Positions 27,363 to 30,263 of a stretch of DNA of 64,000 nt are shown in pieces. A program made the translations under genes and the position numbers. The first letter of the stretch is position 1. Every line of letters starts with the position of its first letter. The notes beneath the pieces are model-generated. The model made no database searches. It was not told the DNA's origin and saw only the letters and a list, made by a program, of their open reading frames with translations. Origin of the DNA: Anaeromyxobacter paludicola. GTDB lineage: Bacteria > Myxococcota > Myxococcia > Myxococcales > Anaeromyxobacteraceae. The stretch covers positions 2,356,001 to 2,420,000 of the forward strand of contig NZ_AP025592.1 in the NCBI RefSeq assembly GCF_023169965.1. Direction: 5' to 3'.

Positions 27363-28658
27363 ATGACCCGACTGTCGCTCCTCCTGGCGCTCCTCCCCGC
27401 CGTCGCCCTCGCGCAGCCCCCGCAGCAGCGGCCGCACATCGAGATCGACCGGCCCGACTTCAAGCCGCTGCCGCTCGCGGTGGCGCCCTTCAAGGCCGAC
27501 ACCGACGCCCTCGCCGCCGCGACCGAGGTGAACGCCACGCTGCGCGGCGACCTCGGCCTGACCGGGCTCTTCGAGCTCCTCGACCCGAGGAGCTTCCTCG
27601 CCGATCCGTCGGAGGGGCTCACCGCCCCGAGCATCCGGTTCCAGCGCTGGATCGACGTCGGCGCCGACGGCCTCGTGAAGGGCGCCGTGCGCGCCGCGGG
27701 CGGCCAGGTCTCGGGCGAGCTCCACCTCTTCGAGGTCCGGGGCGGCCGCGAGGGGCTGTCGGTCACGCGCACCGCGCCGGGCCCGCGCGCCCTGGCCCAC
27801 CTGCTCGCCGACGAGATCGTGCGGTACTACACCGGCGAGCCGGGCGTGTTCGGCACCCGCATCGCCGCCATCCGCAAGGTGAAGGGCGCCCGGGAGCTGG
27901 TCCTCTTCGACGTGGACGGCAAGGACCCGCAGGTGCTGCTGCGCGATCCCTCGCTGGCGATGCTCCCCGCCTGGCGCCCCGACGGGCGCGCCCTCCTCTT
28001 CACGAGCTACCGGGGCGGCAAGCCCGAGCTCTGGACGGTGGACGTCTCCACCCGCGCGGTGAAGCGCGTCGCCTCGGTGGGCGAGCTCGCCACCGGGGGC
28101 GCCTTCTCCCCCGACGGCCGCCTCCTCGCCTTCGCCGCGTCCGAGGCCGGCAACTCCGACATCTGGGTGGCGAACGCCGACGGCTCGAACCCGCGCCGGC
28201 TCACCCACGACCCCGCCACCGACACCTCGCCCACCTGGTCGCCCGACGGCCGCCGCATCGCCTTCGTCTCCACCCGCGCCGGAAACCCGCACCTGTACGT
28301 GATGAACGCCGACGGCTCCGGCCAGCGCCGCCTCACCTTCAAGGGCACCTACAACCAGACCCCGCGCTGGAGCCCGCGCGGCGACCTCATCGCCTTCACC
28401 GGCCGCGACGAGCGCAAGGTCTTCGACGTGTTCCTGGTGAACCCCGACGACGGCAACGACATCCGCCGCGTCACCCAGGACCAGGGCTTCACCAACGAGG
28501 AGCCGACCTGGGCGCCCAGCGGGCGGATGCTCGCGTTCACCAGCGACCGGAACGGCCGGCCGCAGCTGGTGATCTCCACCGCCGACGGGAACCACCAGAA
28601 GGTGGTCACGGCCGATCCGGGCGAGCTGCAGACGCCGGCCTGGGGCCCGCTGCCGTGA
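27363..28658 (+). CDS. tolB: Tol-Pal protein TolB
   Basis: A 431-residue periplasmic protein: signal peptide (residues 1-17), an N-terminal alpha/beta domain (about 20-165), then a beta-propeller made of PD40-type blades. Repeats such as PAWRPDGRALLFTSYRGG, SPTWSPDGRRIAFVSTR and PRWSPRGDLIAFTGRD are clear. TolB binds Pal and the TolA C-terminus. No pal gene follows here, unlike most tol clusters; the next gene starts inside the TolB stop (GTGA overlap). Confidence 0.95.
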   Translation: MTRLSLLLALLPAVALAQPPQQRPHIEIDRPDFKPLPLAVAPFKADTDALAAATEVNATLRGDLGLTGLFELLDPRSFLADPSEGLTAPSIRFQRWIDVGADGLVKGAVRAAGGQVSGELHLFEVRGGREGLSVTRTAPGPRALAHLLADEIVRYYTGEPGVFGTRIAAIRKVKGARELVLFDVDGKDPQVLLRDPSLAMLPAWRPDGRALLFTSYRGGKPELWTVDVSTRAVKRVASVGELATGGAFSPDGRLLAFAASEAGNSDIWVANADGSNPRRLTHDPATDTSPTWSPDGRRIAFVSTRAGNPHLYVMNADGSGQRRLTFKGTYNQTPRWSPRGDLIAFTGRDERKVFDVFLVNPDDGNDIRRVTQDQGFTNEEPTWAPSGRMLAFTSDRNGRPQLVISTADGNHQKVVTADPGELQTPAWGPLP

Positions 28659-29602
28659 GCGACCGCGCCGCCGCCATCGACGTCGGGACCAACACCGTCC
28701 TGCTCCTCGTCGCCGAGCGGCGGGAGGACGGCACCTTCGCGCCGCTGGTGGAGCGGGCCGAGATCACGCGGCTCGGGCGCGGCGTGGACCGGACCGGCCG
28801 GCTCGACCCGGCCGCCATCCGCGACACCGTGACGGTGGTCGCGGCCTACGCCGCCGAGGCGCGCGCGCTCGGGGCCGCGCGCATCGCCTGCGTGGCCACC
28901 AGCGCGGCCCGCGACGCCGCCAACAGCGCCGAGTTCTTCGACGCCGCCCGCGACCAGGCCGGCCTCGTGCCGGAGGTGATCAGCGGCGACGAGGAGGCGC
29001 GGCTCGTCTACGCGAGCGCCTGGCGCGACTTCGGGATCCTCCCGGGCGCCGCGCCCGGCCCGCTCGCGGTGGTGGACGTGGGCGGCGGCTCCACCGAGGT
29101 CACCTTCGGCGACGGCCCGCTCCCGCGCGGGCGCCAGAGCCTGCAGGTGGGCGCGGTCCGGCTCACCGAGCGGCACGTGCGCGCCGACCCGCTCCCGCCG
29201 GCGGAGGCTCGGGCGCTCCGGGAGGCCGCGGCGGAGGCGATGCGGCCGCTCGCGCCCTGGCGCGGCGTGGGCGCGGCGCCCGGCGCGCGGCTCGTCGGCG
29301 TCGCCGGCACGGTCACCACGCTGTCGGCGGTCTCGCAGGGGATCGCCCAGTACGACGCCGGGCGCGTGCACGGCGCGGCCCTCTCGCTCGCCGAGGTGGA
29401 GCGGCTCTACGCGCTCCTCGCCGGCCTCACCGTGGCCGAGCGGGCGCGGCTCCCGGGCATGGAGCCGAAGCGGGCCGACGTGATCGTGGGCGGGTGCGCG
29501 GTGGTGGCCGAGTCGATGCGGGCGCTCGGCTTCGACCGGCTCACCGTCTCGGATCGCGGCGTGCGCTGGGGGCTGCTCTACGACCGGGCGGATCGCGGCT
29601 AG
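28655..29602 (+). CDS. Ppx/GppA-family exopolyphosphatase
   Basis: A 315-residue ASKHA-fold phosphatase. The phosphate-1 motif AIDVGTNTVLLLV starts the protein and the phosphate-2 motif is VVDVGGGSTEVTFGDG (about residues 140-155). A GVAGTVTTLSAV segment follows. The short single-domain form cleaves polyphosphate or pppGpp; which one cannot be decided. The start is GTG at 28655 overlapping the tolB stop by 4 bp, so translation is coupled. Confidence 0.92.
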   Translation: MSDRAAAIDVGTNTVLLLVAERREDGTFAPLVERAEITRLGRGVDRTGRLDPAAIRDTVTVVAAYAAEARALGAARIACVATSAARDAANSAEFFDAARDQAGLVPEVISGDEEARLVYASAWRDFGILPGAAPGPLAVVDVGGGSTEVTFGDGPLPRGRQSLQVGAVRLTERHVRADPLPPAEARALREAAAEAMRPLAPWRGVGAAPGARLVGVAGTVTTLSAVSQGIAQYDAGRVHGAALSLAEVERLYALLAGLTVAERARLPGMEPKRADVIVGGCAVVAESMRALGFDRLTVSDRGVRWGLLYDRADRG

Positions 29603-29624
29603 CGCGCTCGGCGCGGCGCGGGCC

Positions 29625-30263
29625 CTGGCCCGCCGCGTCGCCTTCGGGCCGGCGGCGCCGATCTACGAGCGCCTCACCGACAGCGCCCCCTGGCGCGCCG
29701 ACTGCCGCGCCCTGGCGGCGCTCCTGCCGCCGGGCCGGATCCTCGACCTCGGCGTCGGCCCCGGCACCTCCGCGGTGGAGATGGCCCGGGCCGCGCCCGG
29801 CCGGCGCTTCGTCGGCCTCGACCGGGCCTTCGAGATGCTCCCCCGCGCCCGGCGCCGCGCCGCGCGGGCCGGGGTGGTCCTGCCGCTCCTGCGCGCCGAC
29901 GCCCTCGCCCTCCCCTTCCGCGCGGCGAGCTTCGACGGCGCCGCCGGCCACAGCGTGCTCTACCTCCTCCCCGACGCGGCGCGGGCGCTCGCCGAGCTGC
30001 GCCGGGTGCTGCGCCCGGGCGGGCGGCTGGCGCTGCTCGAGCCGCGCGCGACGCGCGGCGACCTCCTCGCGGCCGGCCGCGACGGGCTGCGGTTCGGCGC
30101 GTCGATGGCGCTCTGGCGCGTCATGTCCGGCCTCCACGGGCGCTACGCCGAGGCGGCGCTCGAGCGGCTGCTCGCCGAGGCCGGGTTCGTCGAGGTCTCG
30201 GCGCGGCCGGTGCTGCGCGGCTTCGGCGTGGTGGCGACCGGCGCCGCGCCGCCCGCGGGTTGA
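29625..30263 (+). CDS. SAM-dependent class I methyltransferase (non-standard or unclear start)
   Basis: A methyltransferase with SAM motif I ILDLGVGPGTSAVEMA, motif II FVGLDRAFEML, DALALPFRAASFDGA, and LRRVLRPGGRLALLEP, as in UbiE/COQ5-type enzymes. The coding frame (open from 29484) has no ATG, GTG or TTG ahead of the motif. The first standard starts (GTG 29769, ATG 29775) would remove motif I. I give CTG at 29625 as the boundary, yielding 212 residues. Conserved-looking sequence (FGPAAPIYERLTDSAPWR) begins just after. Alternatives are ATC at 29592, frameshift from ppx, or a sequence error. The stop is 30 bp before the next gene. Confidence 0.75.
   Translation: MARRVAFGPAAPIYERLTDSAPWRADCRALAALLPPGRILDLGVGPGTSAVEMARAAPGRRFVGLDRAFEMLPRARRRAARAGVVLPLLRADALALPFRAASFDGAAGHSVLYLLPDAARALAELRRVLRPGGRLALLEPRATRGDLLAAGRDGLRFGASMALWRVMSGLHGRYAEAALERLLAEAGFVEVSARPVLRGFGVVATGAAPPAG

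What the first reader, a model, noticed from the sequence alone, without database searches (positions are those of the whole stretch)
29484..29775. Methyltransferase frame without a standard start codon ahead of its SAM motif
From the frame opening at 29484 to 29769 no ATG, GTG or TTG exists, while the conserved N-terminal SAM-binding sequence is encoded at about 29712-29775. Initiation at CTG 29625 or ATC 29592, frameshifting from ppx (stop at 29602), or a base error are options.
Basis: seen in the sequence. Interest (0 to 1): 0.5.

Follow-up and report, generated by a model that had tools for sequence, protein, structure and literature searches.

The report
Methyltransferase gene lacking a standard start
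A maintained bacterial methyltransferase gene, lying directly behind a polyphosphatase gene, has no usual start codon in front of its essential part, and some relatives share this, so its protein is probably begun at an unusual start codon, a rare but known trick.

Summary
The frame 29484-30263 (+) has no ATG, GTG or TTG before GTG 29775, which lies after SAM motif I (29745-29768). A base error is unlikely: in 6 of 10 readable orthologues (window included) the MTase frame is +1 to ppx with no standard start within 25 nt of the ppx stop; window and G022 have none for 173 and 98 nt. The other 4 have ATG overlapping the stop, in another frame. In the two longest cases the start-less stretch is about as constrained as the rest. 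Of 922 coding-like ORFs scanned in this genome, 6 lose over 10 nats of coding signal before a standard start; the other five are prfB, a UGA-interrupted peroxiredoxin, infC, a CTG-started gene and a lipoprotein-like gene. CTG stands where an orthologue has ATG or GTG in two other genes. Best reading: non-canonical initiation beside the ppx stop, with ATC 29592 (11-nt overlap) and CTG 29625 (aligned with outgroup starts) about equally likely. A +1 frameshift from ppx is not excluded but has no slippery site. Known kind; interest modest.

The parts
28655..29602 (+). ppx, Ppx/GppA exopolyphosphatase; GTG start overlapping the tolB TGA (read by eye), stop TAG followed by C
   Evidence: Pfam PF02541 E 1.9e-55; NCBIfam TIGR03706 224 bits, below its cut-off of 307
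29484..30263 (+). open frame of the class I SAM methyltransferase, +1 relative to ppx, no ATG/GTG/TTG before 29775
   Evidence: Pfam PF08241 E 2.1e-20; AlphaFold2 mean pLDDT 93.8
29592..29594 (+). candidate start ATC, giving an 11-nt overlap with ppx
   Evidence: short overlaps favour termination-reinitiation (PMC10666635, passages); infC of this genome also lacks a standard start ahead of its conserved part and has an in-frame ATC there
29580..29582 (+). in-frame ACG, 7 nt behind GGGGG of ppx; in frame in all six no-start members but imposed by ppx codons
   Evidence: codon control
29625..29627 (+). candidate start CTG, 22 nt after the ppx stop, no Shine-Dalgarno
   Evidence: aligns without gap with the starts of both f9 orthologues; two other genes of this genome have CTG where an orthologue has ATG or GTG; weak anti-SD pairing -3.4 kcal/mol
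29745..29768 (+). SAM motif I, DLGVGPGT
   Evidence: beta strand at residues 49-53 of the model
29775..29777 (+). first standard start codon in frame (GTG), residue 62 of the modelled protein, after motif I

Best explanation
The MTase is an intact gene whose translation begins at a non-canonical start codon next to the ppx stop, probably fed by ribosomes that have just translated ppx. Shown here: no standard start ahead of motif I, an unbroken frame, protein-level constraint upstream of the first standard start, and the ppx-MTase order in all ten readable junctions (window included). Inferred: that it is expressed, initiation itself, the coupling, and the codon. ATC 29592 (11-nt overlap, near the reach of termination-reinitiation) and CTG 29625 (place of the outgroup starts, codon evidently used elsewhere in this genome) are about equally likely (roughly 0.3 each), with another near-cognate taking up to 0.1.
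For: Six of ten readable orthologues share the +1 frame without a standard start within 25 nt of the ppx stop, and this state is paraphyletic on the ppx+MTase tree. Window against the nine others, 52 codons ahead of its first standard start: pN 0.22-0.31, pS 0.37-0.48; behind it 0.26-0.29 and 0.35-0.47. G022 against its ATG sister G021: 0.16 and 0.38 ahead, 0.17 and 0.40 behind. Coding signal extends up to the ppx TAG, though its last 7 codons before CTG add only 1.9 nats. The same genome has other genes without a standard start, among them two CTG genes whose G004 orthologue has ATG or GTG at the aligned place. Starts of the two f9 orthologues align with CTG 29625. GTC and ATC starts are documented in Streptomyces (PMC5472188, abstract and passages). 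Short overlaps favour reinitiation (PMC10666635, passages).
Against: No peptide or ribosome data. CTG 29625 has no Shine-Dalgarno and sits 22 nt past the stop; distances of about 20 nt nearly abolished reinitiation in tests in E. coli and Haloferax; the two other CTG genes both have a Shine-Dalgarno. ATC 29592 has no usable Shine-Dalgarno either, and its 11-nt overlap lies just outside the -8 to +10 nt range that paper takes as predictive. No near-cognate codon except ACG is common to all six no-start members, so each lineage would need its own codon; G023 has none in the ppx overlap except ACG. AAR just upstream of CTG resembles genus g3 and speaks mildly against CTG; the outgroup alignment speaks for it. 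G022 against G003, G019 and G016 shows higher pN ahead of the start (0.26-0.28) than behind (0.18-0.19), so constraint is not equal in every pair.
Confidence: 0.7

Rival explanations
1. Programmed +1 ribosomal frameshifting: a share of ribosomes shift +1 near the end of ppx and make a Ppx-MTase fusion.
For: All six no-start members have the MTase in the +1 frame relative to ppx while all four ATG members have it in the -1 frame; the stop is followed by C in all six (TAGC or TGAC, a context recalled as weak for termination) and by G or T in the four. The genome has the +1 site of prfB (CTCCGGGGGTCCCTTTGAC).
Against: The codon before the stop is GGC, GGA, CCG (three) or GGC, none of which, by my reading, re-pairs well one base on; no shift-prone site is conserved. 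The GGGGG run is ordinary: Gly codon GGG occurs in 7 of 9 family genomes without the MTase whose ppx end can be read. The +1 frame is also the phase of 8-nt and 11-nt start overlaps, so the frame correlation does not need a frameshift.
Confidence: 0.12
2. Initiation further inside: GTG in the AVY position (G003, G019, G016, G023) or ATC 29661 in the window, giving an N-terminally shorter enzyme.
For: GTG stands at the same aligned codon in four no-start members, and ATC there in the window and G022. G003 and G019 also have an earlier GTG, only 9 codons in.
Against: In G023 the 14 codons ahead of that GTG show pN 0.07-0.24 and pS 0.32-0.55 against the eight other g3 genomes; F18, upstream of that place, is invariant in 22 orthologues; the four ATG members carry ATC there internally. 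Counts are small, and G016 against G021 shows pN 0.20 above pS 0.08.
Confidence: 0.08
3. Decaying or silent gene in this genome that lost its start.
For: No standard start, no expression data.
Against: No stop or frame break; constraint ahead of the first standard start is like that behind it in the window's comparisons. The confident fold (pLDDT 93.8) fits but does not prove activity.
Confidence: 0.06
4. Sequencing or assembly error removing a start.
For: GC-rich sequence.
Against: Single-contig genome with estimated completeness 99.97; five other genomes share the +1 frame without a standard start within 25 nt of the ppx stop, and G022 (also one contig, contamination estimate 6) lacks one for 98 nt.
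Confidence: 0.02

Closest known systems
sigR of Streptomyces (GTC start, repressed by IF3, coupled to rsrA); PMC5472188, abstract and passages
   Same: High-GC bacterium, non-ATG/GTG/TTG start shown by experiment, two-gene coupled unit
   Different: There the non-canonical gene is the upstream one and a regulatory role was shown; here nothing is tested
infC with ATT or ATC start
   Same: Near-cognate start; infC of this same genome also has no standard start before its conserved part
   Different: infC has a known feedback reason; none is known for this MTase
Translational coupling by termination-reinitiation at overlapping genes (ATGA, TGATG); PMC6728339 and PMC10666635, passages
   Same: Four orthologues have these overlaps (ATGA in three, TGATG in one)
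   Different: The window and five others have no standard start within 25 nt of the ppx stop
prfB +1 programmed frameshift
   Same: Downstream frame without a start, +1 to the upstream frame
   Different: No conserved slippery codon at the ppx stop

Membership tests
class I SAM-dependent methyltransferase (Methyltransf_11/25) | Pfam domain above the curated cut-off with motif I | tested here: met
   PF08241 73.6 bits against 21.2; PF13649 70.6 against 27; fold matches to solved methyltransferases
a named NCBIfam methyltransferase equivalog (DVU_1556, UbiE/MenG, BioC) | score above the curated cut-off | tested here: not met
   best NF045667 75.9 bits against 155; TIGR01934 60.3 against 158; none of the 25 shown of 28 reaches its cut-off; substrate unknown
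genes with a non-canonical start codon | no ATG/GTG/TTG compatible with the conserved protein | tested here: met
   for the window:
genes with a non-canonical start codon | N-terminus or initiation site measured | not testable with these tools
   needs N-terminal peptide mapping or ribosome profiling
termination-reinitiation coupled pair | start overlapping or within about 10 nt of the upstream stop | tested here: inconclusive
   ATC 29592 overlaps by 11 nt, CTG 29625 lies 22 nt beyond; distance rule from PMC10666635 passages
programmed +1 frameshift | conserved shift-prone codon before a stop or slow codon | tested here: not met
   codon and stop in six members: GGC TAG, GGA TAG, CCG TGA (three), GGC TGA

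The most novel reading that the evidence does not exclude
A lineage-wide arrangement, ancestral to this branch of the family, in which the MTase is made without any standard start, through a common mechanism tied to the +1 frame: either a weakly sited +1 frameshift giving a Ppx-MTase fusion, or initiation at the ACG that the ppx codons impose 7 nt behind a GGGGG Shine-Dalgarno-like run.
Probability: 0.15. Interest if true: 0.6.

Novelty: new member of a known kind. Interest (0 to 1): 0.35.

Why it matters
Gene callers mostly assume ATG, GTG or TTG, so such genes can be cut short or lost; here that cut would remove the cofactor site. The genome offers several parallel cases (CTG in two genes, probably ATC in infC, perhaps ACG) that would make start choice in a GC-rich myxobacterium testable, and one orthologue set that keeps a methyltransferase behind ppx with and without a standard start.

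Tried and rejected
G5 run as signal: the GGGGG in ppx (RWG codons) looked like a shared Shine-Dalgarno or slip site, but GGG occurs in 6 of 6 no-start, 1 of 4 ATG and 7 of 9 MTase-less family genomes with a readable ppx end, so it is background.

Synonymous-site conservation in the ppx tail as a sign of overlapping coding: the last full block (DRGVRWGLLY) shows a synonymous share of 0.17 in the six no-start and 0.30 in the four ATG genomes, but blocks further inside the no-start ppx are as low (0.14, 0.17, 0.20) and three of the six genomes are close kin; I do not count it.

Sister genome G001: its contig breaks inside the MTase; a DNA search of G001 with 601 bases round the junction gave 29 matches, that contig end and otherwise short ones spread over the query, so its junction could not be read. 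The ten junctions are 10 of the 11 family genomes with the MTase, of 24 searched.

Codon log-odds between 29604 and 29624 sum to 1.9 over 7 codons, too little to choose ATC over CTG.

Family of the L105 gene: no Pfam or NCBIfam match at 1e-5; the name metallophosphoesterase-like, used in my notes, is from recalled motifs.

Papers: PMC3711429 (passages) mentions neither exopolyphosphatase nor Anaeromyxobacter. Six searches were made; in the rows shown (15 of 29, 15 of 2,669, 8 of 55, 12 of 16, 15 of 17, 10 of 28) no title or abstract start deals with this gene pair. Papers not in the library were not searched.

Full report
Observation. The frame of the methyltransferase runs from 29484 to 30263 on the plus strand and holds no ATG, GTG or TTG before GTG 29775. 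ppx (28655-29602) ends in TAG; the MTase frame is +1 to it. SAM motif I lies at 29745-29768, ahead of that GTG, so the first standard start would give a protein without its cofactor site. By composition alone such a run has a chance of about 0.012.

Identity. The frame is a class I SAM methyltransferase (Methyltransf_11, E 2.1e-20), below the curated cut-off of each of the 25 NCBIfam models shown of 28. AlphaFold2 on the alignment of 22 orthologues gives pLDDT 93.8 with a first helix at residues 2-17 counted from ATC 29592 (block mean 80 for the first ten residues), beta 1 at 49-53, and GTG 29775 at residue 62. The 50 PDB matches shown are methyltransferases or relatives at 14-29% identity, many acting on small molecules. 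Substrate is unknown.

Relatives. The genome is one contig of 4.59 Mb. Of 24 genomes held for the family, 11 have the MTase at E 1e-25 or better; one (G001) is cut before its N-terminus, so 10 junctions can be read, window included, and ppx stands directly in front in all 10. In G008, G013 and G020 the MTase starts with ATG in an ATGA overlap, in G021 with ATG in a TGATG overlap; in these four the MTase frame is -1 to ppx. In the window, G022, G003, G019, G016 and G023 the MTase frame is +1 to ppx. Their first standard starts lie 173, 98, 26, 26, 50 and 74 nt past the last base of the ppx stop, costing 58, 33, 9, 9, 17 and 25 codons of the post-stop frame. The claim is therefore strong for the window and G022, fair for G023 and G016, and weak for G003 and G019, which could begin at GTG +26.

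Tree. On ppx plus MTase proteins rooted with the two f9 genomes the no-start state is paraphyletic: window outermost in the family, G022 sister to G021 (support 100), G023 sister to the G008 group (support 84, and only 49 with ppx alone). Two gains of ATG or four losses explain it; parsimony prefers an old +1, start-less arrangement.

Is the start-less stretch translated? I compared pN and pS ahead of and behind the first standard start (the ragged first 19 alignment columns left out). Window against the nine others, 52 codons: ahead pN 0.22-0.31, pS 0.37-0.48; behind 0.26-0.29 and 0.35-0.47. G022 against the nine others, 31 codons: ahead pN 0.13-0.28, pS 0.23-0.42; behind 0.17-0.25 and 0.35-0.41; against its ATG sister G021 0.16 and 0.38 ahead, 0.17 and 0.40 behind, but against G003, G019 and G016 pN ahead (0.26-0.28) exceeds pN behind (0.18-0.19). 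G023 against the nine others, 14 codons: pN 0.07-0.32, pS 0.32-0.55. G016, 14 codons, is mixed (against G021 pN 0.20, pS 0.08). For G003 and G019 only 6 codons can be compared and some pairs show pN above pS. So the gene is kept as a protein upstream of its first standard start in the window, and very likely in G022 and G023; the rest is too short to tell.

Control in the same genome. I took 60 stretches of 20 kb plus the window and asked how much coding signal each of 922 coding-like ORFs of at least 100 codons loses before its first standard start. Six lose more than 10 nats: prfB (TIGR00020, with the CTTTGAC shift site); a gene beginning with CTG (L105); this MTase; a peroxiredoxin with an in-frame UGA (PrxQ-like); infC (TIGR00168); and a GH5-like protein with a lipoprotein-like leader (L115). 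The scan thus recovers genes known elsewhere for recoding or non-canonical starts. The L105 gene has CTG in both genomes held for the genus and ATG at the same place in G004, the third of the 3 of 24 genomes with it. An EamA transporter below the line (7.5 nats) has CTG where G004, the one other genome of 24 with it at 1e-40, has GTG. Both have AGGGAG ahead in this genome. So CTG is very probably a start codon here.

Which codon? For CTG 29625: starts of the two f9 orthologues (ATG in L016, GTG in L018) fall in its alignment column without gaps, and most f7 starts fall one column before; CTG is evidently used elsewhere. Against it: no Shine-Dalgarno (-3.4 kcal/mol), 22 nt past the ppx stop, when about 20 nt nearly abolished reinitiation in E. 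coli and Haloferax (PMC10666635, passages), and an AAR upstream that resembles the AAR or AGR of genus g3 (by eye). For ATC 29592: 11-nt overlap with ppx, just outside the -8 to +10 nt range of that paper but overlapping; it includes the AAR; infC of this genome has an in-frame ATC near its expected start. Against it: no usable Shine-Dalgarno; but the ATG starts of G008, G013 and G020 have little or none either (0.3, -2.7 and 0.4 kcal/mol). ACG 29580 stands 7 nt behind GGGGG with the strongest pairing of the window's candidates (-8.4 kcal/mol) and its like is in frame in all six, but both ACG and GGGGG follow from ppx coding and codon habit. In G003, G019 and G016 a GTC makes an 8-nt overlap; GTC is the start of Streptomyces sigR (PMC5472188, abstract and passages).

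Frameshift. The +1 frame in all six and the C after each stop (G or T in the four ATG members) fit a +1 shift, but the codons before the stop (GGC, GGA, CCG, GGC) are not shift-prone by my reading and not conserved. Overlaps of 8 and 11 nt have the same phase, so the frame bias does not need a shift.

Rarity. [quoted passage not shown] A non-canonical start is rare but of a known kind, and I score the finding accordingly. The less ordinary part is that several relatives share the missing start at the same junction without sharing an obvious replacement.

Noticed in passing
L105:7589-8764 (-); G000:C1:4007589-4008764: Gene starting with CTG behind AGGGAG; same CTG in the sister genome (L148), ATG at the aligned place in G004 (L149).
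   Followed up: yes
L100:8867-9763 (-): EamA transporter with CTG behind AGGGAG where the G004 orthologue (L154) has GTG.
   Followed up: yes
L115:11566-13269 (+): GH5-like protein with a lipoprotein-like leader and no standard start in its leader; ACG stands 6 nt behind GGAGG. The G021 orthologue has ATG and the G008 orthologue GTG ahead of the leader.
   Followed up: partly
L121:16625-16942 (-) and upstream: Peroxiredoxin frame interrupted by one in-frame UGA, perhaps a selenoprotein; no SECIS element or Sec tRNA was searched.
   Followed up: partly
L094:18314-19360 (-): prfB with the +1 shift site CTTTGAC.
   Followed up: yes
L130:8849-9505 (+): infC without ATG/GTG/TTG before its conserved part; an in-frame ATC upstream is the likely start.
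   Followed up: partly
L080, ppx end of G006: In a genome without the MTase the gene after ppx looks like the HAD phosphatase, apparently started at GTG in an 8-nt overlap, the same phase as the no-start MTases (read by eye).
   Followed up: no
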